Shown here in pieces: positions 7,773 to 18,584 of a stretch of 64,000 nt of DNA; position 1 is the stretch's first letter, and each line of letters starts with the position of its first letter. The notes under the pieces are model-generated. The model ran no database searches. It was not told the DNA's origin and saw only the letters and a list, made by a program, of their open reading frames with translations. The DNA is from Xanthomonas rydalmerensis. GTDB taxonomy: Bacteria; Pseudomonadota; Gammaproteobacteria; Xanthomonadales; Xanthomonadaceae. The stretch is from contig NZ_CP126170.1 in NCBI RefSeq assembly GCF_033170385.1, forward strand, positions 4,116,001-4,180,000, read 5' to 3'. Made by a program: the position numbers and the translations under genes.

Positions 7773-9218
<1,446 letters not shown>

Positions 9219-9250
9219 GCCGTTGGCAAGACATCGCCATGCAGACAAGA

Positions 9251-9277
9251 ACGGGCGCCGCGAGGCGCCCGTTTTTT
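9251..9277 (+). terminator. Rho-independent terminator of ahcY
   Basis: A 9-bp perfect stem (9251-9259 with 9264-9272, loop GCGA) is followed by a run of T, 33 nt after the ahcY stop codon. Confidence 0.93.
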
Positions 9278-9488
9278 GTGCGGTCGGTGCTGCGAGCGCA
9301 TGGTCGGGAGGCTAGGAACATGCTCGGGAGGCTAGGAATTCGTATCGAGCGAAAACTGCCGGCATCGCTGAGCCAATCCCTGCTCCAAACGGACTTTCCG
9401 GCAAGCTGACCGAAGGCGGCTGTCCGGCCAGGCCGCCTGTACCACACCTGTGCTACATTGATTCCACACCAATCGCCTGGAGCTCCCC

Positions 9489-9773
9489 ATGAGCACCACC
9501 ACCATCCGCCTGCCGGACGCGCTCAAGGCCCGCATCGCCAAGGCTGCGGAAGCGGCCGGCACCACGTCGCACAACTTCATCCTGGAAGCCATTGCCGAGA
9601 AGGCCGAGCTGGCCGAGCGGCGCGTCGACTTCCATGCAGAGGCCGAGCGCCGTTGGGGCCAATTCCTCGAGACCGGCGAGAGCATTCCCTGGGACGAGAT
9701 GCGTCGTTATCTGATGGAACGCATTGAGGGCAAGGACACTCCCCCTCCCGTCCCCCGCAAGTTCGCGAAATAG
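9489..9773 (+). CDS. Ribbon-helix-helix (CopG-like) antitoxin
   Basis: A protein of 94 residues. The start MSTTTIRLPDALKARI is a classic ribbon-helix-helix DNA-binding strand and first helix, and the acidic, flexible C-terminal half would wrap the toxin. GGAG (9479-9482) precedes the ATG. It lies 1 nt upstream of a ParE/RelE-type gene, the usual antitoxin-first order of type II modules. By family behaviour it would neutralise the toxin and repress its own promoter (an extended -10, TGCTACATT, lies at 9451-9459). Confidence 0.85.
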   Translation: MSTTTIRLPDALKARIAKAAEAAGTTSHNFILEAIAEKAELAERRVDFHAEAERRWGQFLETGESIPWDEMRRYLMERIEGKDTPPPVPRKFAK

Positions 9774-9774
9774 C

Positions 9775-10074
9775 ATGGCGCACGTCGAGTTCCTGCCATC
9801 TGTCAACGAGGACCTACGGCGCATCATCGGCCATCTGGAACAACACGAAGCCGAACATATCCAAGAGCGTCTGAGCGAGATCGTCAGCGCATCGAACGTG
9901 CTGACGGACAATCCGCTGATCGGCCGGCTGACGCGCCATGATGTGCGTGAACTGGTCATTGGCCAAGGCGCTCACGGATATATTGCCCTCTACCGATACG
10001 TGGTTGCGCTGGATACCGTCTTTGTCCTGGCGATCCGCGCGCAACGCGAGGCAGGCTATGCACGCGATGCCTAA
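9775..10074 (+). CDS. ParE/RelE family type II toxin
   Basis: A protein of 99 residues with the compact toxin fold signature: MAHVEFLPSVNEDLRRI at the start, DNPLIGRLTRHDVREL in the middle, and a C-terminal GYIALYRYVVALDTVFVLAIRAQ strand region ending in arginine-containing residues. ParE-type toxins poison gyrase and RelE-type toxins cut mRNA on the ribosome; the sequence does not settle which, though the RHH partner fits ParE better. The start is the ATG one base after the antitoxin stop. It sits at the left edge of the accessory block that interrupts the ahcY-metF neighbourhood. Confidence 0.82.
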   Translation: MAHVEFLPSVNEDLRRIIGHLEQHEAEHIQERLSEIVSASNVLTDNPLIGRLTRHDVRELVIGQGAHGYIALYRYVVALDTVFVLAIRAQREAGYARDA

Positions 10075-10463
10075 CATCAAGGCCGGCGCGCCAACCTGAT
10101 CGATGCGATGCTGACAGGGACATGGGCGCGCGAAGCCCCACCCCGACTGATTTGCTACAACTGCGCCCCCTCGCGCCTGCTAGCGCGGCACTTCGCTGCC
10201 GGAAGATGAAATGCTGAGTGACTCCCGCAGCAAACTGGCGATCGCGAAGCCAATCGCACCGTGCTTGGTCGTGGCACGAGCGTCGACCAGACCAAGCACG
10301 ATGCGGCGCGGCTGCAGGCGCGGTTCGCCCATGACACCAACGGTATCGACCGGTATCGCATCGGCATGGACACGCAGGCGCCAAAGGTGACATGGCCCCA
10401 CTGCAGATTCCGCAACGCACACACCGGACATCGCCATCTAGTGCCTGAGACGGCGCAAGTCTT
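10075..10463. other. Intergenic stretch with no supportable gene
   Basis: This holds about 390 nt between the toxin gene and the convergent methyltransferase gene. A minus-strand frame (10180-10437, 85 codons) is open but lacks a ribosome site or recognisable motif; it could be a decayed gene. GCTTGGTCGTGGCACG and CGTCGACCAGACCAAGC (10263-10298) form an inverted repeat around TTGGTC/GACCAA. Confidence 0.4.
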
Positions 10464-11225
10464 TCAGATCCTGCGCTCGCCAGCCGGCACGTACACCGAA
10501 ATCTGGATGCGGCTGCGCGCGTGATACGGCGCACGTGCCCAGTCGCTCCAGCGCGCCTCACGACGTAGGCCGGCGATCTGCGCCATCAGGTCCAGCTCCG
10601 ATGGCCACACGTAGCGGCGGCGCTCGCTGAAGATGCGCGTGCCGGACTCACCCAGCACCACCACGCGCTGGTCGATGCGTTGCTGCAGCGGATCGGGCTG
10701 CGAGCACACCAGCATCACCGCCGCGCCGTCGCCGTCGGTATCCGGCACGTCCAGCACCTGACTGACCTTGCCGCCGCCGTCGAACACCTCTGCGCCCGGC
10801 ACCGCGGTCTGGATCAGCAGGCGCCCGTCGGGCGCCAGGCAGCGCGCCGCGTTGACCATGCAACGCAGTTGTTCGGCCTGGGTCAACAGATAGCCGAACG
10901 CCGCCACCGCATAGATCAGGCCGAACGGCCCGGACACCGGCATGTCGGCGAAGTCGGCGCAGACCAGTTGCAGACGTTCGCTGCCGGGTTTGGCGCGCAA
11001 GGCCTCGAGCATCGCCGGCGCGTTGTCGATGCCGGTGACCGGCACATCGCGATGCGCGAGCGACAAGCCGAGGCGGCCGGTGCCGATGCCCAGTTCCAGT
11101 GCCGCACGGCCCGCGGCCAGCTCGGCGAGGACACCGACGCACTGCTGCGTGACGACGTCGGGCCAGCGATCGTAGAACCGGTCGTAGATCGCGGCCAGGC
11201 GGTCGTAGTCGTGGGTCACGGGCAT
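10464..11225 (-). CDS. Class I SAM-dependent methyltransferase (possible tailoring enzyme of the RiPP cluster)
   Basis: A protein of 253 residues with a seven-strand methyltransferase fold. Motif I is ALELGIGTGRLGLSLA (Glu44 and the glycine loop), followed by VTGIDNAP for the SAM ribose, an FGLIYAVAAFGYLL motif IV region, and CLAPDGRLLIQT. The N terminus (DYDRLAAIYDRFY) is typical of small-molecule methyltransferases. I chose ATG 11225; the frame is open further upstream but has no better start. It is divergent from the peptide/P450/sulfotransferase unit and shares its 280-nt control region. A methyltransferase also accompanies the P450 in the cittilin pathway, so O-methylation of a peptide tyrosine is a reasonable guess, not shown. 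Confidence 0.88.
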   Translation of the reverse strand: MPVTHDYDRLAAIYDRFYDRWPDVVTQQCVGVLAELAAGRAALELGIGTGRLGLSLAHRDVPVTGIDNAPAMLEALRAKPGSERLQLVCADFADMPVSGPFGLIYAVAAFGYLLTQAEQLRCMVNAARCLAPDGRLLIQTAVPGAEVFDGGGKVSQVLDVPDTDGDGAAVMLVCSQPDPLQQRIDQRVVVLGESGTRIFSERRRYVWPSELDLMAQIAGLRREARWSDWARAPYHARSRIQISVYVPAGERRI

Positions 11226-11440
11226 CCGTAGCCACTCGTTGCCGAAGTGGCGCGACGATAGCACGCACTGATGCGACGGGATGGCGCGTCGCACAGGGCA
11301 ACGCCGTGCATGGCAGGCGCTGCAATGAACGGCGGTTGCGTGCAATACACGGCACGGCGCCGCAGATGACAGGCGCATTGCAGTTGGCCGCGCTTCAGTC
11401 TTTCGCTTGCGTCGCCACACCCAAGCAGGGATGCTTTTCC

Positions 11441-11465
11441 CGCGTCTGTCACGGTGACAGACGCG
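11441..11465. promoter_or_regulatory. Perfect 12-bp inverted repeat upstream of the peptide gene
   Basis: CGCGTCTGTCAC (11441-11452) and GTGACAGACGCG (11454-11465) are exact reverse complements around one base. It lies 40 nt before the peptide ATG and between it and the divergent methyltransferase gene. It is probably an operator for a dimeric regulator not encoded beside the cluster; a 5' RNA hairpin is the alternative. A weak -35-like TTGCGT sits at 11407-11412. Confidence 0.6.
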
Positions 11466-11505
11466 ACAACCGCAACAGATTCCCCGTTCAATCAGGAGTA
11501 TCGCC

Positions 11506-11586
11506 ATGAAACGCCTTTTTGATTCGCTGTCGCGCTGGGTGCAGAGCCTCGGCGGCCGCAAGCTCGGCTACATCTACACCTACTGA
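11506..11586 (+). CDS. Putative RiPP precursor peptide, 26 aa, Tyr-rich C-terminal core (cittilin-like)
   Basis: A small open reading frame of 26 codons. It begins MKRLFDSLSRW and ends GGRKLGYIYTY followed by TGA. AGGAG (11494-11498) is placed 7 nt before the ATG, so translation is well supported. The first 15 residues would form an amphipathic helix suited to leader recognition. A Gly-Gly and a basic pair (GGRK) precede the tyrosines and could mark leader removal. Tyr22, Tyr24 and Tyr26 alternate with Ile and Thr. Known cittilin precursors from Myxococcus are about 27 residues and end YIYY, with a P450 that joins the tyrosines by biaryl and aryl-ether bonds. Here the P450 gene lies 151 nt downstream. 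The assignment rests on size, C terminus and neighbours; no homology search was possible. Confidence 0.75.
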   Translation: MKRLFDSLSRWVQSLGGRKLGYIYTY

Positions 11587-11617
11587 CCTTCCCGCCACCG
11601 TCGTGTGGCGTGCCTGT

Positions 11618-11660
11618 GCGAGAGGGGGCAATCGTCCGCCCTCTCGCGGCGCTTCTTTTC
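11618..11660 (+). terminator. Attenuator-like hairpin between precursor and P450 genes
   Basis: GCGAGAGGG (11618-11626) pairs with CCCTCTCGC (11639-11647) over 9 bp with a 12-nt loop, and a T-rich stretch (CTTCTTTTC, 11652-11660) follows. Partial termination here would give more precursor than enzyme message, a common arrangement in RiPP operons. The T-tract is interrupted, so read-through is expected. Confidence 0.5.
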
Positions 11661-11737
11661 GCCCGGCCACGCGCTTCGTTCGCCATGCGACACATGCCAG
11701 CTTCCGTCTCGCGGCGCGTCACCATGCGGATCTTCGC

Positions 11738-13114
11738 GTGACCGAAGCGCAGCGACTGCCACCAGGGCCGCGCGGGCACTGGGCGTTCGGCAATCGGCAG
11801 GCCTTCGCTGCCGATCCCCTGGAATTCCTGCAACGCAGCGCACGCGAGCATGGCGACGTAGTGCAGATCGCCGAGCGCACCTATCTGATCGCGGCACCGG
11901 CTGCCATTGCCACGGTGCTCGGCGACGACGGCAGCCTCTATGCCAAATCGGATCCGGATCCGCGTGCGCGCCGCGCCGCATTCCCGGGATCGGTGATGAA
12001 CAGCGAGGGCGAGGCCTGGCGGCACAAGCGCCAGGCACTGCAGCCCGCGTTCCGCGCCAGCCTGGTGCGCGACTACGCCGGGCAAGCGCTCGCTGCCACG
12101 CAAGCGTTGTTGCAAGCGCGCAATGACAGCGTCCACGCCCAGGATCTGCGCCTGACGATGACGGCGCTTTGTGCGCAACTGGGCGCCGGTTTCCTGCTCG
12201 GCGACACCGCACACGCGCCAGCACTGCTGCGAATGCTGCCGATGGTCGATGCGATCCTGCAGCAGACGCGCACGCCATCGGCGGCACCGGCCTGGTGGCC
12301 GAGCGCCGGCAAGCGGCAACTGCGTACCGCACGCAGCGAACTGGACAACGCGCTGACGCAGATCCTGGCGTCGCCGCGTTCAGCAGGCACAGGCGCCTCG
12401 GTACTGGAGCTGCTGCAGCGCGACGATCCGCAGGGCCAGGGCGATTGGTGCCGCGACGAAGCGGCGGCGATGCTGATGTCGGCGCTGGAGCCGATGGCGG
12501 CCGGCCTGACCTGGACGCTGCTGCTGCTGGCCCAGCATCCCTCGATCGCGCAGGCGGTGGCGGAGGAAGCCGATGCCCTGCCCGGCCTCGACAGCGCGTC
12601 CGCCACGGCCTGCGACGACGCGCTGGTCGAACGCCTGCCGCTGGCGCGCGCCTGCGTGAAGGAAGCCATGCGCCTGTATCCGCCGGCGTGGATGACCGCG
12701 CGCATCGCCCAACGCGACACCACGCTGGAGGGCTTCGCGGTGCCACGCGGCACCCAGTTGGTCATCAGCCAATGGGTGGTGCAGCGCGATCCGCGCCACT
12801 TCGCCGCGCCGGACCGCTTCATGCCGGCACGCTGGCTGGACGCCGCACATGCGCCGGCGCGCTACACCTACTTCCCTTTCGGCGGTGGCCCGCGCAGTTG
12901 CATCGGCAGCCAACTGGCGCTGGTGCAGATGACCGTGGTCGTGGCCGGCCTGCTGCGCGAGCGCACGCTGCAGCTGGCCGCGGATGCGCAGCCGCGGCCG
13001 TATCCGGCGCTGGTGCTGCGTCCGCTCGATGTCCGCATCGCCCTGCGCCCGCGCACGGCAGCCCCGCCTCGCCAGTCGCCTATCGCGACGGCGCCACTCG
13101 CTCCCACACCGTAA
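11738..13114 (+). CDS. Cytochrome P450, probable peptide tyrosine crosslinking enzyme
   Basis: A protein of 458 residues from GTG 11738; the start is chosen because VTEAQRLPPGPRG is a normal P450 N terminus and the frame further upstream is non-conserved leader. Motifs are the K-helix EAMR (Glu309, Arg312), a PERF-like segment (APDRFMPARW) and the heme loop FGGGPRSCIG with proximal cysteine Cys388. In the I-helix, SALEPMAAGLTWTLLLLAQHP aligns with the usual AGHETT region so that the acid is kept (Glu251) but the oxygen-activating Thr is Pro252. That pattern suits phenol coupling rather than hydroxylation. No ferredoxin gene is nearby, so electrons must come from elsewhere. It is followed after 7 nt by a sulfotransferase gene. 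Action on the upstream 26-residue peptide is inferred. Confidence 0.9.
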   Translation: MTEAQRLPPGPRGHWAFGNRQAFAADPLEFLQRSAREHGDVVQIAERTYLIAAPAAIATVLGDDGSLYAKSDPDPRARRAAFPGSVMNSEGEAWRHKRQALQPAFRASLVRDYAGQALAATQALLQARNDSVHAQDLRLTMTALCAQLGAGFLLGDTAHAPALLRMLPMVDAILQQTRTPSAAPAWWPSAGKRQLRTARSELDNALTQILASPRSAGTGASVLELLQRDDPQGQGDWCRDEAAAMLMSALEPMAAGLTWTLLLLAQHPSIAQAVAEEADALPGLDSASATACDDALVERLPLARACVKEAMRLYPPAWMTARIAQRDTTLEGFAVPRGTQLVISQWVVQRDPRHFAAPDRFMPARWLDAAHAPARYTYFPFGGGPRSCIGSQLALVQMTVVVAGLLRERTLQLAADAQPRPYPALVLRPLDVRIALRPRTAAPPRQSPIATAPLAPTP

Positions 13115-13121
13115 GCCCCGC

Positions 13122-14036
13122 ATGGCTGATCCCGCCGCCTTCGCCAAGACCCGGGAATATCCCAACCGCTTTTTCGATTCGGCCGCCTGGAACGCGCTGG
13201 CCTTCCGCGACGGCGACATCGTCATTGCCAGCTACGCCAAGGCCGGCACCACCTGGCTGCAGCAGATCGTCGCGCAGTTGTTGTTCGAGGGCGCGGCGGA
13301 CGTCGACGTATCGGCGATCTCGCCATGGTTGGACGGCGTGTACCCGGACCGCGCCAGCAAGCTCGCGCTGCTGCAGGCGCAGACCCACCGGCGCTTCATC
13401 AAGACCCATTTGCCGGCCGATGCATTGGCGGTCAGCGATCGCGCCAAGTATCTGTACATCGGCCGCGATGGCCGCGACATCGCGCTCAGTCTGTACGACC
13501 ACCAATGCGCGGTCAGCCAGGATGCGCAGGCGCGGCTGGACGCCGGCGCGGCCGAACCCGGCAAGCTGCGCGTGGTGCCGCCGCCGAGCCTGCCGGTGGA
13601 CGCCTACGTGGCGCATTGGCTGGCCCAAGACGGTGCACCGTTCTGGCCGTTCTGGGAAGGCGTGCGCAGCTGGTGGCAGCAGCGCGCGCAGCCCAATGTG
13701 CTGCTGGTGCACTACGCCGACCTGCTGGAGGATCTGCCCGCACAGGTGCGGCGCATCGCCACGTTCCTGGAGATCCCGGTACGCGAGGCGGCCTGGCAGA
13801 CGATCCTGGCGCACTGCCGATTCGGCTACATGCGCCAACACGCCGCACGCTACGTGCCGCAGGGCGCCGGACTGTGGCGCGAGGGCGGCAAGGCCTTCTT
13901 CAACCAGGGCCGCAGCGGCCGCTGGCGCACGCTGTTGCCGGCGGCCGTCGCCACCGACTATGAGGCGCGCGCGCAGGCAGAGCTGGGCCGCGAGGCCGCG
14001 CAGTGGCTGGCGCAGGGCGCAGGGGCGTCCGCATGA
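13122..14036 (+). CDS. PAPS-dependent sulfotransferase (Sulfotransfer_1 type)
   Basis: A protein of 304 residues. The 5'-phosphosulfate loop YAKAGTTWL lies at residues 38-46, the catalytic histidine is in KTHLP (His96), the 3'-phosphate site is YIGRDGRDIALSLYDH (Arg115, Ser123), and the C-terminal GRSGRWRTLL resembles the GxxG PAPS-binding motif. These are all elements of cytosolic aryl and alcohol sulfotransferases, which move sulfate from PAPS to a hydroxyl group, often a phenol. It starts 7 nt after the P450 stop and its own stop overlaps the next sulfotransferase start, so it is part of the same operon. A tyrosine hydroxyl of the crosslinked peptide is the natural candidate acceptor, by inference. 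Confidence 0.9.
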   Translation: MADPAAFAKTREYPNRFFDSAAWNALAFRDGDIVIASYAKAGTTWLQQIVAQLLFEGAADVDVSAISPWLDGVYPDRASKLALLQAQTHRRFIKTHLPADALAVSDRAKYLYIGRDGRDIALSLYDHQCAVSQDAQARLDAGAAEPGKLRVVPPPSLPVDAYVAHWLAQDGAPFWPFWEGVRSWWQQRAQPNVLLVHYADLLEDLPAQVRRIATFLEIPVREAAWQTILAHCRFGYMRQHAARYVPQGAGLWREGGKAFFNQGRSGRWRTLLPAAVATDYEARAQAELGREAAQWLAQGAGASA

Positions 14037-14737
14037 GCCTGCGCATCATCGGCGCCGGCCTCGGCCGCACCGGTACCCTGTCGCTGAAAGTGGCGCTGGA
14101 GCATCTGGGCCTGGGCCGCTGCTATCACGCCATGGAACTGGCCGCGAACCTGCGCCAGGCCTTGCCGCTGTGGGACGCGGCGATCGACGGGCAGGCGGAT
14201 TGGGAAGCGCTGTTCGCAGGCTACACCGCCACCGTCGATTATCCCGGCTGCTGCTTCTGGCCCGAACTGGTCGCACGCTATCCGCAGGCCCGGGTGATCC
14301 TGACCGTGCGCGATGCCGATGCCTGGTTCGATTCGGTGCGCAGCACCATCTTCGCCAGCGACGGCAGCGTGCCGGCCTTGTTCGGCCCCGATGGCCAACG
14401 TCTGAGTCAGTTCCTGCGCCGTGGGTTCGCCACGCGCATCGACGATCGCGGCTTCATGACCGACTATTTCCACCGCTGGAACCAGGCCGTCATCGCCAAC
14501 GTACCGGCACATCGCCTGCTGGTACTCGACACCGACGCGCAGAGCGGCTGGGAACCGCTGTGCGCCTTCCTCGGCGTGCCGGTGCCGGCACAGCCGTATC
14601 CGCGCGTGCATGCGCGCGGCAGCAACGGCGCGCAAGCGCGCCCGCTACCGAGCGGACCAGCACAACGCGAACAACGCCTGCGCGCCTACCTGGACCGGCT
14701 CGCCGTGGAGGCGTTCGCGCCGTCCGTCGACGGCTGA
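14033..14737 (+). CDS. Second sulfotransferase family protein (Sulfotransfer_4-like)
   Basis: A protein of 234 residues from ATG 14033, which overlaps the previous stop (ATGA). It begins with a P-loop-like PAPS site (IIGAGLGRTGTLSL, residues 5-18), then KVALEHLGLGRCYHAMEL and a 3'-phosphate site RVILTVRDADAWFDSV, as in the compact sulfotransferase family often placed with NAD-binding-like annotations. It is a different subfamily from its upstream neighbour, so the two probably modify different positions or one serves a precursor. Tight coupling to the P450 gene argues for the same pathway. The natural acceptor is unknown. Confidence 0.83.
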   Translation: MSLRIIGAGLGRTGTLSLKVALEHLGLGRCYHAMELAANLRQALPLWDAAIDGQADWEALFAGYTATVDYPGCCFWPELVARYPQARVILTVRDADAWFDSVRSTIFASDGSVPALFGPDGQRLSQFLRRGFATRIDDRGFMTDYFHRWNQAVIANVPAHRLLVLDTDAQSGWEPLCAFLGVPVPAQPYPRVHARGSNGAQARPLPSGPAQREQRLRAYLDRLAVEAFAPSVDG

Positions 14738-14748
14738 TCGCCACCCGG

Positions 14749-15531
14749 CTACAGCGAGAAATTGCGCTTGATGGTGAACGACCAGGCGCCGTCGATCGGA
14801 TTGGTGACATGCACCCGGCCGTCGCCATCCGGTACGCCAGTGGTGTAGCGGCGGTAGACCCCGGCGCTGTTCCAGGCCCGCGAATAGGCCAGCCCGAACT
14901 CGGTGCCGCGCCAGGTGCGGCTCAGGCCTACGCGCGCGTCGGTCCAGCCGTAGTCGGCGAAGTTGCGCACGTGCTGATGGCCCGCATGCATGCTCGCCTG
15001 CCAGTCCGACGCCAGCGGTAGCGTGGCGTCCAGCGCCAGATAGCTGGAGCCGCGCGAGTGCTGGCCCTGGCCGACGCCCAGCGTGGCACTGTTGTAGCCG
15101 AAGTAGTCGCGCGTCCAGGTGCTGGCATAGGACAGCTCCACCGTCCGCCAGTGCCCGGCGACGATGGCTTCGCCGTAGTCGTAGCGGGTGCCGCTGGCGC
15201 TCATGCGCGCGCCGGGATACGCGTAGTGGTAGACGCCGGCGCGCCAGCCCCAGTCGCCATGGCTGGCCGCATAGCCGGCATACACGTCCCACTCCACGTG
15301 CCCGCCTTCGATGAAGTACGAACTCACGCCCGACGCCCAGGTGCCGGCATACCAGCCGCTGTCGGCGGCCACGTCCAGCCCGCCCTGCAGCACCGGCCGG
15401 CCCCAGCTCTGCTCGAAACCGCGCGAGACGTAGTTCGAGGTCGCCGCCAGATTGGCGCTGGCGGTCCCGGCCCAGGCCGGTGCAGCGGCGCCCAACGCGA
15501 GCAGGAGCACTCCCGTGCGCACGGCCCTCAC
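14749..15531 (-). CDS. TorF family putative porin (Gcw_chp)
   Basis: A protein of 260 residues with a clear signal peptide ([15 protein letters not shown], cleavage about residue 21). A mature part rich in alternating aromatic and small residues follows, ending in Phe-Ser-Leu as in outer-membrane beta-barrels. [20 protein letters not shown] is the family hallmark near the mature N terminus. The GTG start (15531-15529) overlaps the TGA of the chemoreceptor gene (GTGA), so it is probably the second gene of that transcript. An alternative GTG lies three codons later. It converges on the second sulfotransferase gene with only 11 nt between the two stops. Its substrate is unknown. Confidence 0.85.
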
Positions 15532-18068
15532 GACGCCAGCTCCAGCCGCGTCCGGCCCGAGGTCCCCAGGCCGCCCGGCGATGGTGCCGCGAGCTTGAAC
15601 AACGCCACCGCGCGCTGCAGTTCCTCGGCTTGCTCCTCCATCGCCCGCGCCGCCGCGGTGGCCTCCTCGACCAGCGCGGCGTTCTGCTGGGTCACCTCGT
15701 CCATCTGCACGATGGTCTTGCCGACCTGTTCGATGCCGGCGCTCTGTTCCTGCGAAGCGGCGGCGATCTCGCTCATGATGTCGGTGACCCGACGCACGCT
15801 GGCCACCACCTCGCGCATGGTGTCGCCGGCGCCGTTCACCAACGCGGTGCCGTCGTCGATCTTCCCGACCGAGGTATCGATCAGGCCCTTGATCTCGTGC
15901 GCCGCGGTCGCCGACCGCTGCGCCAGCGCGCGCACCTCGCTCGCCACCACCGCGAAGCCGCGCCCCTGCTCGCCGGCGCGCGCGGCTTCCACCGCGGCGT
16001 TGAGCGCCAGGATATTGGTCTGGAAGGCGATGCCGTCGATCACACCGATGATCTCGGCCATCTTCTTCGACGCGGCGGCAATGCCGGTCATGGTCTCCAC
16101 CACCTGCTCGACCACTGCGCCGCCACGCGACGCCACACCGGCGGTGTCCTGCGCCAGGCGATTGGCCTGGTGCGCATGCTCGGCGTTCTGCTTCACCGTG
16201 GAGGTCAGCTCCTCCATCGAGGCCGCGGTCTCTTCCAGATTCGCCGCCTGCTGCTCGGTACGACGCGACAGGTCGTCATTGCCGGCCGCGATCTCGCCGG
16301 CGGCGGTGTTGATCGCGGTGGTGGCCTGCTGGATGCGACCGACGATGCCGGTCAGCTGCTCCACGGTGGCATTGGCATCGTCGCGCATCTGCGCGAACAC
16401 GCCATGGAATTCGCCGTGCATGCGCGCGGTGAGGTCGCCCTGCGCCACGGCGCGCAACAGCGCCGACAAGGCCGAGAGATTGCCTTCGGTCAGCTCCATC
16501 AGCCGGTTCAGCCCGACCACCATGCCGCGGAAGTCGTACTGGAAGCGTTCGGCATCGCCGCGCCGGGAGAAATCGCCGGAGGCCGCGGCCTGTGCCAGTT
16601 CGGTGATGGCCTGGTTGATCGCCTGCAGGCTGTGCTTGGTGGTGCGCATCGCCTCGGTGATCGCCGCCTTCTCGCCCGGCAGCGGTTCCATGTCCACCTG
16701 CATGTTGCCGATCGCGTACTGCGACATCACCTCGACCAGGCGCCGCTGCACGTCCACGTGCGCGGCGACCAGCGCGTTGGTGCCGTGGACCATGCGCCCG
16801 TATTCGCCGGGGAAGCGCTCGGCGTCCATCCGGTAACTCATCTCGCCGGCGTCGTGGCGCTGCGCCATCTCCGCCTGGGCCTGCATCACCGCCTGCAACT
16901 GCGTCTGCATGCTGCCCATCGCATCCAGCAGCTGGCCCAGTTCGTCGTCGCGACGGTGGCGGACCTGGCTGTCCAGGCGCCCGGCGGCGACCGCCGAGGA
17001 CACGCGCACCGCCTCGGCCAGCGGATCGAGCACCTGCCGGCGCAGCAACAGGTACAGCGCACCGCTCAGCAACAACGCCGAGAGCAGGCCGACCGCGGCG
17101 ATGGTCCACAACAGCGCACGCGCCTTGGCCATGACCAGCGCATACGGCACCGAGATGCCCAGCGCGAACGCCTGCGGCGCATCGCCGATCTTCAGCGGCA
17201 CGAACACGTTCAATGCATCCTCGCCGTCGGCGCGGCGATGGTCGAATACCACCTCGCCCTTGGCCACGCGCGCGAGCATGTCCTTGGACCAGGCGTCGTT
17301 GCGGGTCTTGCCGACCTGCTGCGGATCGCGGCTGGCCATCACCATGCCCAACGGCGACAGCAGGCTGGCGTAGCCCTCGCCCATCGGCCGCAGCGCGGCG
17401 ATGCGCTGCTGCAGCGTATCCAGGGTGAAGTCGACGGTAACCACACCTAGGAAGCGGCCGTTCTCCAGGATCGGCGTGGCCAGCGTGGTCATCAACGTGT
17501 CCTTGCCGGCCACCGGGTAGTAGTACGGCTCGATCACCACCGGCTTGTGCGTATTGCGCGCCAGCAGGTACCAGTCGCCGTCGCCCGGCTTCTCGTAGTC
17601 GCGCAGCGCCTCGCGCACCAGCTTGCCGTTCTGCCGCGACCACCAGGTCATGTAGCGGCCGGTGGCATCGTGGCCCTCGGCACCGACGAAGGCCTTGTCG
17701 TTGCCGTCGAACGCGTCCGGCTCCCACATCGTGCTGATGCCCAGCCATTGCGGATGCGCGTCGAGCTGGCTGCGCAACACCGCGGTGGCGGTGGCACGCG
17801 ACAGGCCAGCGGCGTGCTGCACGCGGAAGCTGTTGGCCAGCGCATCGCTGGCGTCGAAGGCAACACCGATCTCGCGCGACACGCGCTGCGCTTCCAGTTG
17901 CGCCAGGTTCTCGATGCTGGTGCGCGAGGTCGACAGCAATGCATCGCTGCTGCGCCAGTAGATGATCATCGCGGTCAGGCCGAAACAGGCGAGCGCGAGC
18001 AGGCCGGTACCCAGCATCAGGCGTTTGGCGACGCTGCCGCGACGGCGATGCGGCGACGGAGTGGACAT
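15528..18068 (-). CDS. Methyl-accepting chemotaxis protein with dCache sensor and several HAMP-like repeats
   Basis: A protein of 846 residues from ATG 18068 (AAGGA ribosome site). One transmembrane helix lies at about residues 18-36; a periplasmic dCache-type sensor ([34 protein letters not shown]) leads to a second helix at about 317-339. Then comes a first HAMP ([11 protein letters not shown]) and at least two further HAMP-like modules, before the signalling coiled coil with hairpin tip [17 protein letters not shown] and [15 protein letters not shown]. There is no C-terminal CheR/CheB pentapeptide. It would report ligand binding to CheA and CheW. A FliA-type promoter lies about 200 nt upstream, tying it to the flagellar regulon. 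The porin gene follows with overlap. Confidence 0.95.
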
Positions 18069-18584
18069 GAGGGCTTCCTTGGCGGGGAGAGGGAATACGG
18101 TCGCGGGGAACGCGCCACGCGGCAGCTCACCGCAGCGCGCGGCGCGAGCGCGCCGTGTCCGTTGCCGATGATCTGCCCGGGACGCCTTCCCCATCGGGCC
18201 ACGACGCGCGGCCGGGCATCACGTCCCGGCGCGGCTGCATGGCGGCCCACCCCATCGCTATCGTCCCGTCGCCCGCAAACTTGATGGCCATCCCGCGCCA
18301 GGCCGATGAACGGACGGGTGTTCGCGTTCAAAGCGGCCGATCGCGCGTGGTTTTCTCCTGTATGCATGCGCCAGTGAACAGCCGCGCGCACTGGTGCAGC
18401 ACTGCGTGTCGGCATGCACAAGCGCGACGGCATGAGGGACGAGCCATGCGGATACCGGCGAGGTACGCGCGGTATGCGAGCAAGCCGCACGCGAACGGAC
18501 GGCGCCCCCGGTGCGGCCACGGCAGCCCGGTGTTGCTGCCGGCACGACGGTGCATCGACAATGGCCCGTACAAGGAGAGAGGCC
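18069..18584. other. Divergent control region between chemoreceptor and DUF6630 genes
   Basis: This is 516 nt with no supportable gene. It holds the FliA-type promoter for the chemoreceptor (minus). Plus-strand frames through it are GC-driven and lack a ribosome site. No riboswitch motif was seen. Confidence 0.5.
18258..18284 (-). promoter_or_regulatory. FliA (sigma-28) type flagellar promoter of the chemoreceptor gene
   Basis: On the minus strand TCAAGTTT (18284-18277), an 11-nt spacer and GACGATAG (18265-18258) match the sigma-28 consensus TAAAGTTT-N11-GCCGATAA at 7 of 8 and 6 of 8 positions with exact spacing. Confidence 0.72.

What the first reader, a model, noticed from the sequence alone, without database searches (positions are those of the whole stretch)
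11226..14737. Compact P450/sulfotransferase cluster around a 26-residue Tyr-rich peptide: a candidate new cittilin-like RiPP system
Seen: a well-translated 26-codon ORF (AGGAG, ATG 11506) ends LGYIYTY; then come a P450 gene and two sulfotransferase genes separated by 7 nt and by an ATGA overlap, with a divergent methyltransferase gene sharing the control region. Known: cittilins (Myxococcus) arise from a precursor of about 27 residues ending YIYY, crosslinked by a P450 into biaryl and aryl-ether rings with a methyltransferase nearby. Inference: Tyr22-Tyr24 and Tyr24-Tyr26 are joined here, giving a YIYTY scaffold that differs from YIYY by an inserted Thr and may carry phenol sulfates. The unmodified YIYTY pentapeptide is about 721.33 Da; each crosslink would remove 2.02 Da, each sulfate would add 79.96 and each methyl 14.02.
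Basis: partly seen in the sequence, partly recalled or inferred. Interest (0 to 1): 0.95.

Follow-up and report, generated by a model that had tools for sequence, protein, structure and literature searches.

The report
Bacterial copy of plant hormone phytosulfokine
A small gene cluster in a Xanthomonas-like plant bacterium encodes a short peptide ending YIYTY next to two sulfate-adding enzymes and a tyrosine-crosslinking-type P450; most sister genomes without the P450 encode YIYTQ at the same spot, the exact sequence of the sulfated plant growth hormone phytosulfokine, so the cluster probably makes a hormone look-alike.

Summary
In detail: a 26-codon ORF ending LGYIYTY, then P450, two sulfotransferases (ST1, ST2) and a divergent methyltransferase (MT). 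The P450 falls in one supported clade with P450s beside cittilin-type YIYY peptides in Myxococcus, so the cittilin link holds. The same genes occur beside sahH in Xanthomonas relatives, and on Agrobacterium vitis plasmids with an identical YIYTY core and an unrelated leader. Ten Xanthomonadaceae genomes without the P450 keep ST1, ST2 and MT (decayed in one) at that site; their peptides end YIYTQ (8), YIYTN (1) or YIYIP (1). YIYTQ is phytosulfokine-alpha and YIYTN phytosulfokine-delta, plant hormones sulfated on both tyrosines. Within the family Tyr5 tracks the P450 (12/12 against 0/10). Tyr1 tracks ST1: two loci without ST1, in separate lineages, have Phe1. Best reading: a phytosulfokine-type RiPP locus in which each sulfotransferase serves one hormone tyrosine; the window's version adds a C-terminal tyrosine that a cittilin-type P450 probably couples to Tyr3. 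Chemistry, export and receptor binding are untested. Five full-text searches on phytosulfokine listed no report of such a bacterial cluster.

The parts
11506..11586 (+). Precursor peptide gene, 26 aa: 21-residue leader plus C-terminal core YIYTY
   Evidence: found at 12 of 12 P450-bearing family loci; core pN/pS 0.19 against leader 0.53
11569..11583 (+). Core codons Tyr22-Ile23-Tyr24-Thr25-Tyr26 (phytosulfokine-type YIYT plus Tyr)
   Evidence: Identical core in Agrobacterium vitis/Allorhizobium ampelinum with an unrelated leader; YIYTQ/YIYTN at 9 of 10 P450-less orthologous loci
11738..13114 (+). Cytochrome P450 of the cittilin-type clade; proposed to couple the C-terminal Tyr26, most likely to Tyr24
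   Evidence: PF00067; clade of 24 rows, SH-aLRT 99, that holds 23 of the 23 peptide-bearing rows; heme motif FPFGGGPRSCIG; I-helix reads LEPM, with Pro after the acid (motif meaning recalled)
13122..14036 (+). ST1, PAPS-dependent sulfotransferase; proposed to sulfate core Tyr1 (Tyr22)
   Evidence: PF00685; KAGTTWL, KTHLP, RDGRD, GRSGRWR; matched in 21 of 395 family genomes, one of them with an in-frame stop (G263); not found where core Tyr1 is Phe
14033..14737 (+). ST2, sulfotransferase; proposed to sulfate core Tyr3 (Tyr24)
   Evidence: PF17784; GLGRTGTLSL loop; 58-59% identical in Agrobacterium vitis, 41-44% in Nocardiopsis-family YxYY loci
10464..11225 (-). Class I SAM methyltransferase, divergent, co-conserved; target unknown
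   Evidence: PF13649; matched at 11 of 12 P450-type loci (in two pieces in G263 and G416) and 10 of 10 P450-less loci (decayed in G294), and beside all five Agrobacterium-group loci opened
11226..11505 (.). Divergent control region between methyltransferase and precursor
   Evidence: no sigma-70-type site or PIP-box-like repeat found
11618..11647 (+). GC-rich hairpin just after the precursor stop, a possible attenuator between precursor and enzymes
   Evidence: z -2.3 here; hairpins at the same place with different sequence in the 6 of 6 P450-type loci picked for folding; the terminator scan found none

Best explanation
The window holds the P450-bearing form of a bacterial phytosulfokine-type RiPP locus. 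SHOWN by sequence: precursor, P450, ST1, ST2 and MT travel together; two alternative forms sit at the same site beside sahH. Form A has no P450 and mostly the core YIYTQ/N; form B (the window) has the P450 and mostly the core YIYTY. INFERRED: the cittilin-type P450 couples the C-terminal Tyr5, most likely to Tyr3; ST1 sulfates Tyr1 and ST2 sulfates Tyr3; MT adds a methyl at an unknown place; an unidentified protease cuts near the basic pair before the core; an unidentified exporter releases the product. The product is a sulfated phytosulfokine (form A) or a ring-constrained phytosulfokine analogue (form B), and it acts on the phytosulfokine receptor of the host plant, which would damp immunity and promote growth.
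For: Form A cores are YIYTQ in 8, YIYTN in 1 and YIYIP in 1 of 10 loci. YIYTQ is PSK-alpha, sulfated on both Tyr; YIYTN is PSK-delta (passages of PMC11534595). The DNA pattern for YIYTQ-stop occurs in 3 of 85 whole genomes, each time at this locus. Two sulfotransferases stand for two hormone tyrosines. Tyr5 tracks the P450: 12 of 12 P450 loci, 0 of 10 P450-less loci (Fisher p 1.5e-6, ignoring shared descent). Tyr1 tracks ST1: Tyr1 in all 21 family loci with an ST1 match and in all 5 rhizobial plasmid loci opened; Phe1 in G017 and in R. lemnae copy 2, where no ST1 was found. Identical YIYTY core with an unrelated leader in the five Agrobacterium-group loci opened, of six found. The same six plasmids head the P450, ST2 and ST1 searches of 72,556 plasmids. 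P450 clade with the Myxococcus YIYY loci. Named ST1 relatives outside Xanthomonas include Brenneria, Paracidovorax anthurii, Robbsia andropogonis, Trinickia caryophylli and the Agrobacterium group, known to me as mostly plant pathogens. PSK is proposed to damp pattern-triggered immunity, and pskr1 mutants resist biotrophic bacteria better (passage of PMC12873527).
Against: No chemistry, expression or activity data. MT has no place in plant PSK that I know of. No protease or exporter is among the genes identified at the locus; no signal-peptide predictor was run. YIY alone is older than plant association: YIYY stands in Myxococcus and Nocardiopsis, and most Nocardiopsis-family loci also have an ST2 relative, so part of the likeness is inherited. 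A Tyr3-Tyr5 ring might not fit a PSK receptor. Core variants YIYSY, YIYIY, FTYIY and YIYIP depart from PSK. One Tyr1 locus has an ST1 with an in-frame stop (G263). ST1 relatives at about 52-55% also occur in marine and other bacteria, and the Sulfitobacter locus opened had no such peptide.
Confidence: 0.65

Rival explanations
1. A plain cittilin-like RiPP: two crosslinks within YIYTY, phenols decorated with sulfate and methyl, role unrelated to plants; the phytosulfokine likeness is inherited YIY plus chance.
For: P450 clade with Myxococcus YIYY loci; YIY also in Nocardiopsis with an ST2 relative; cittilin made by one P450, CitB, from a 27-residue precursor (passage of PMC8708641).
Against: P450-less orthologous loci keep both sulfotransferases and in 9 of 10 read exactly YIYTQ or YIYTN; Phe or His at core position 1 argues against an obligatory Tyr1-Tyr3 link.
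Confidence: 0.2
2. The P450 does not crosslink but hydroxylates or otherwise oxidises the C-terminal Tyr of a linear sulfated phytosulfokine analogue.
For: Tyr5 tracks the P450; the sulfated tyrosines of phytosulfokine are positions 1 and 3.
Against: Its clade holds the Myxococcus YIYY loci, whose P450 type makes biaryl and aryl-ether bonds; Tyr3 and Tyr5 are both invariant in the 12 family P450 loci; the I-helix Thr usual in hydroxylases is Pro here (meaning recalled).
Confidence: 0.12
3. The product signals between bacteria or inhibits an enzyme, and the plant hormone match is convergence without host effect.
For: No exporter or host-induced promoter motif seen at the locus; sulfotransferase relatives also in non-plant bacteria.
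Against: Exact hormone sequence in two natural variants, a matching pair of sulfotransferases, and plant-associated carriers in two classes.
Confidence: 0.1
4. The ORF is a regulatory leader or chance ORF and the P450 oxidises a small molecule.
For: Short ORF with a hairpin downstream.
Against: Amino-acid-level constraint on the core; same core with unrelated leaders in two classes; 24 of 96 P450 loci against 0 of 1374 random windows.
Confidence: 0.02

Closest known systems
Cittilin RiPP system of Myxococcus (CitA/CitB/CitC)
   Same: Short precursor of 26-27 residues, MK(K/R) start, core at the extreme C-terminus with YIY, one P450 about 200 nt downstream, same P450 clade; a methyltransferase is used (passage of PMC11285071)
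   Different: Core YIYTY, not YIYY; two sulfotransferases; P450 only 40% identical; sister loci drop the P450 altogether
Plant phytosulfokine (PSK-alpha YIYTQ, PSK-delta YIYTN)
   Same: Form A core identical to each; two tyrosines and two sulfotransferases; two of the hormone's natural endings occur
   Different: Bacterial precursor of 29-30 residues, bacterial PAPS-type sulfotransferases in place of plant TPST (recalled), an added methyltransferase; form B ends in Tyr and has a P450
RaxX/RaxST of Xanthomonas (mimic of the PSY hormones)
   Same: Related hosts, bacterial tyrosine sulfation, mimicry of a sulfated plant peptide (passages of PMC8618561)
   Different: Other hormone, other precursor (60 residues per the abstract of PMC6637879 in a listing), one sulfotransferase with secretion genes (partly recalled); no P450
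Aminopyruvatide P450 ApyO
   Same: P450 that joins two Tyr in a C-terminal YxY (passages of PMC11117315 and PMC13192836); best NCBIfam hit of the window P450
   Different: 195.6 bits against a cut-off of 525, and a P450 without such a peptide scored 198 (L058), so the hit is not specific; no MNIO or B12-radical enzyme among the genes identified here

Membership tests
Cittilin-type RiPP | Short precursor with a C-terminal Tyr-rich YIYY core | tested here: not met
   Core is YIYTY; related but with an extra residue
Cittilin-type RiPP | P450 of the CitB clade next to the precursor | tested here: met
   One 24-row clade, SH-aLRT 99, with the Myxococcus ...PYIYY loci; identity of those loci with citAB rests on the peptide and on recall, no citB record was read
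Cittilin-type RiPP | Biaryl plus aryl-ether crosslinks | not testable with these tools
   Needs MS/NMR; comparison favours one Tyr3-Tyr5 link
Phytosulfokine | Pentapeptide YIYTQ (or YIYTN) | tested here: not met
   Window core is YIYTY; met by 9 of 10 P450-less orthologous loci
Phytosulfokine | Sulfate on Tyr1 and Tyr3 | not testable with these tools
   Two co-conserved sulfotransferases with the usual motifs; ST1 presence tracks Tyr1
Phytosulfokine | Acts through PSK receptor | not testable with these tools
   No assay
RaxX/RaxST | RaxX-like PSY core in the precursor | tested here: not met
   Core is YIYTY; PSY-type cores read DY... (passage of PMC11534595)
RaxX/RaxST | Secretion genes beside the precursor | tested here: not met
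   Genes identified at 7773-18194 are SahH, RHH antitoxin, ParE toxin, MT, P450, ST1, ST2, TorF-type porin and a chemotaxis receptor; genes further away were not examined for this
Aminopyruvatide | ApyO above its curated cut-off | tested here: not met
   195.6 of 525 bits

The most novel reading that the evidence does not exclude
Xanthomonas and other plant bacteria make genuine phytosulfokine (PSK-alpha, and in one case PSK-delta) with a dedicated pair of sulfotransferases, one per tyrosine. The window's lineage, and the Agrobacterium vitis lineage, carry a P450 that turns it into a ring-locked phytosulfokine analogue with altered stability or receptor output. The two forms are alternative alleles of one hormone-mimic locus, possibly derived from a cittilin-like ancestor.
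Probability: 0.5. Interest if true: 0.97.

Novelty: new variant of a known kind. Interest (0 to 1): 0.93.

Why it matters
RaxX is the one bacterial tyrosine-sulfated plant-hormone mimic in the parts of a 2026 review table that I saw (PMC13157962). If this reading holds, a second hormone, phytosulfokine, is copied by several plant-pathogen lineages with enzymes of their own, and some of them lock it with a P450. That would link RiPP chemistry to hormone mimicry, give P450/sulfotransferase tools for making constrained sulfopeptides, and give a function to a locus found in 22 of the 395 Xanthomonadaceae genomes searched (union). It is directly testable with a known standard and known receptor mutants.

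Tried and rejected
Regulatory uORF and chance ORF: rejected by core constraint and controls. ApyO membership: rejected; the NCBIfam hit is below cut-off and a P450 without such a peptide scores as high. More distant P450s of the order (L044-L048) showed no such peptide. Viral contigs: 6 pattern matches, none a relative. Sulfitobacter indolifex, a P450 plus ST1-like locus: no YxYxY peptide. Mesorhizobium ciceri and Streptomyces NBC_00704 ST2-like loci: no P450/ST1 set in the annotation tables; the Nonomuraea stretch has no annotation. ST1 in 250 genomes of the Acidovorax family: none at 1e-80, with no positive control. PIP box: none. Rfam: none. Peptide by tblastn in plasmids: none, although the Agrobacterium peptides are there, so that search is insensitive. 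A hairpin after the precursor was clear in only 1 of the 4 P450-less loci folded.

Literature: five searches on phytosulfokine and five on cittilin, P450 RiPPs or the core letters. I saw listings, some of them cut (25 of 85, 20 of 93), and no listed title or abstract described a bacterial phytosulfokine cluster. Most subscription papers are not in that library. Passages only were seen of PMC8618561, PMC11534595, PMC13157962, PMC12873527, PMC8708641, PMC13417212, PMC11285071, PMC11117315, PMC13192836 and PMC11450843. The 2021 database-mining paper reported to name one metagenomic proteobacterial PSK is not held; I know it only through PMC8618561.


Full report
WHAT IS THERE. The window lies at 4,116,001-4,180,000 of a one-contig 5.04 Mb genome. 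Its P450 is 98% identical to that of Xanthomonas sp. 3498. Between sahH (with a small toxin-antitoxin pair after it) and a TorF-type porin gene lie a divergent methyltransferase (10464-11225 -), a 26-codon precursor (11506-11586 +), a P450 (11738-13114 +), ST1 (13122-14036 +) and ST2 (14033-14737 +).

CONSERVATION OF THE P450 FORM (form B). The P450 is in 7 of 20 genus genomes at E<=1e-30 and 12 of 395 family genomes at E<=1e-60, one of them split in two pieces (G416). All 12 have the precursor upstream and lie beside sahH. Cores: YIYTY in 9, YIYSY (G001), YIYIY (G132 = X. axonopodis DSM 3585) and FTYIY (G017). Eleven of 12 have MT and ST1 matches; G017 has neither beside its P450, and no ST1 anywhere at 1e-40. 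Nine of 12 have all four enzymes as single pieces without stops. Besides G017 the exceptions are G263 (MT and ST2 in two pieces, one stop in ST1) and G416 (MT and P450 in two pieces). A search with the peptide itself matched the same 7 of 20 genus genomes and none of the other 13; it missed the diverged peptides of G002 and G016 described below. Summed over pairs of sequences, pN/pS is 0.53 in the leader and 0.19 in the last six codons, most core amino-acid changes coming from G017; for seven form A peptides it is 0.54 and 0.13.

THE SAME SET ELSEWHERE. Among 72,556 plasmids the P450 query hits 12 records at 1e-40, six of them Agrobacterium vitis or Allorhizobium ampelinum. I opened five of those six (the sixth, H4, has the same coordinates as H3). 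All five carry MKKFLAVFIGASKLNRRKPRYIYTY, absent from their gene tables, then P450 (34-37%), MT (46-47%), ST2 (58-59%) and ST1 (55-56%). The core is identical, the leader is not. Rhizobium lemnae has two loci. Copy 1 (YIYTY, P450, MT, ST2) runs to a contig end, and the genome's only ST1 match starts about 110 bases into another contig. Copy 2 (FIYTY, P450, MT, ST2) has no ST1 in the 12 kb read. Myxococcus loci read ...KLSAPYIYY, which I recognise from recall as the cittilin precursor type. In the Nocardiopsis family 9 of 150 genomes have the P450 at 1e-60; 7 of these have a PY[IV]YY peptide, one (L174) reads PYTYY without the stop, one (L177) has none, and 8 of 9 have an ST2 relative next to it; a further Nocardiopsis locus (L056) has PYIYY but no ST2 match. 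An Acidovorax MAG reads HRYIY, with no ST1 match in its genome at 1e-10 and no ST2 match beside its P450.

P450 KINSHIP. Of 96 P450 loci scanned, 24 have an upstream peptide ending [YFH]xYx?Y; reverse strands gave 0 of 96 and random windows 0 of 1374 (several of the 24 are near copies). In a tree of 95 P450s the 23 peptide-bearing rows and one more (L174, the PYTYY locus) form one clade with SH-aLRT 99, the window's P450 inside it (quick method, no bootstrap, some long branches). So it groups with peptide P450s and not with the other P450s sampled; those were found by likeness to this family, and named small-molecule hydroxylases were not put in. The NCBIfam ApyO hit is weaker evidence than it looks: it is under the cut-off, and a P450 without such a peptide scores the same.

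THE P450-LESS FORM (form A). ST2 turned up in two genus genomes without the P450 (G002, G016; a third, G005, has only a short piece with a stop), and ST1 in ten family genomes without it (21 of 395 in all). At all ten the locus sits beside sahH in the order ST2-peptide-ST1-MT on one strand; nine of ten have the three enzymes as single pieces without stops, and in G294 the MT is decayed. The peptides end AYIYTQ (8), AYIYTN (1) and AYIYIP (1, G294). [quoted passage not shown] The DNA pattern for YIYTQ-stop occurs in 3 of 85 whole genomes and only at this locus; the reversed control gave 0 (the other seven form A genomes were not in that sample). By ST1 identity the ten include relatives of X. 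euvesicatoria and X. arboricola (99%) and X. fragariae (100%). Forms A and B do not occur together: 0 of 22 genomes that have either. ST1 splits into an A clade and a B clade; the ST2 of G017 falls in the A clade, so that locus looks like a recombinant.

MECHANISM. Three associations assign the enzymes. (i) Tyr at core position 5 goes with the P450: 12 of 12 against 0 of 10 within the family (Fisher p 1.5e-6, not corrected for descent), and in all seven rhizobial loci read. (ii) Tyr at position 1 goes with ST1: Tyr1 in all 21 family loci with an ST1 match (one of them with a stop, G263) and in all five plasmid loci; Phe1 in G017 and in R. lemnae copy 2, which lack it. (iii) ST2 matches in each of the 22 family loci and seven rhizobial loci read, where Tyr3 is invariant. 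Hence ST1 for Tyr1, ST2 for Tyr3, P450 for Tyr5, most simply coupled to Tyr3. These are inferences. ST1 carries the PAPS and catalytic motifs of cytosolic sulfotransferases, and ST2 the loop of its family (motif names recalled). The residues before the core share a basic pair in most members of both forms and in Agrobacterium (GRKLG, PRKVA, RRKPR), a possible cleavage signal. A hairpin follows the precursor in the 6 of 6 P450-type loci folded (z -2.2 to -4.5) but clearly in only 1 of 4 form A loci, and the terminator scan found none. Attenuation is therefore a suggestion only.

WHY A PLANT ROLE. Exogenous PSK is proposed to suppress pattern-triggered immunity, and pskr1 mutants resist biotrophic bacteria better (passage of PMC12873527). 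Fungal PSK genes and one metagenomic proteobacterial PSK are on record (passages of PMC8618561), and RaxX is the known sulfated bacterial mimic. Named ST1 relatives outside Xanthomonas include Brenneria, Paracidovorax anthurii, Robbsia andropogonis, Trinickia caryophylli and the Agrobacterium group (120 of 3303 proteins listed); marine relatives follow at lower identity. Against this: MT is unexplained, no exporter or protease is among the genes identified, YIY predates plant association, and a ring might hinder receptor binding. PSK-beta (YIYT) has about a tenth of the activity of PSK-alpha, so a changed fifth residue need not abolish activity.

VERDICT. The cittilin reading is half right: the P450 is of that kind, but the core and the sulfotransferases point to phytosulfokine. 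I file it as a new variant of a known kind (bacterial mimic of a sulfated plant hormone, made by RiPP enzymes), not as a cittilin or as phytosulfokine itself, since one defining feature of each is not met.

Noticed in passing
L202, L203, L226, L228-L233 (form A loci): 29-30 codon ORFs ending YIYTQ or YIYTN between ST2 and ST1, the exact PSK-alpha and PSK-delta sequences.
   Followed up: yes
L168:4838-4912 and L055:5800-5874 (Rhizobium lemnae): Two paralogous loci in one genome, cores FIYTY without ST1 and YIYTY with ST1 possibly next to it across a contig gap.
   Followed up: partly
L043 (G017): Apparent recombinant locus: form B P450 and precursor (core FTYIY), ST2 of form A type and inverted, MT and ST1 missing.
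   Followed up: partly
L139 (G416, X. phaseoli pv. phaseoli ATCC 49119): P450 and MT each in two pieces while precursor, ST1 and ST2 match in one piece.
   Followed up: no
L136 (G263): Form B locus that seems to decay: MT and ST2 in two pieces and a stop in ST1, with P450 and core YIYTY intact.
   Followed up: no
L227 (G294, ST1 100% identical to X. fragariae): Decaying form A locus: fragmented methyltransferase and core YIYIP.
   Followed up: no
L089, L090, L171-L176 (Nocardiopsis family): YIYY/YVYY precursors with cittilin-type P450 and an adjacent ST2-like sulfotransferase: candidate sulfated cittilins in actinomycetes.
   Followed up: partly
L204 (G005): Short ST2 remnant with a stop at the same site beside the porin gene, a likely lost locus.
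   Followed up: no
window 9489-9773 and 9724-10074 +: Ribbon-helix-helix antitoxin and ParE-type toxin pair beside sahH; the antitoxin is found at the same site in 5 of the 7 form B genus loci.
   Followed up: no
L140-L144, downstream of ST1: A phytanoyl-CoA dioxygenase family gene on the opposite strand follows the cluster in all five Agrobacterium-group loci opened; possibly a further tailoring enzyme.
   Followed up: no
Proteins P0132, P0137, P0140, P0144, P0146: ST1 relatives at about 58-60% in Brenneria, Paracidovorax anthurii, Robbsia andropogonis, Trinickia caryophylli and Sphingobium mellinum; their neighbourhoods could not be read here.
   Followed up: no
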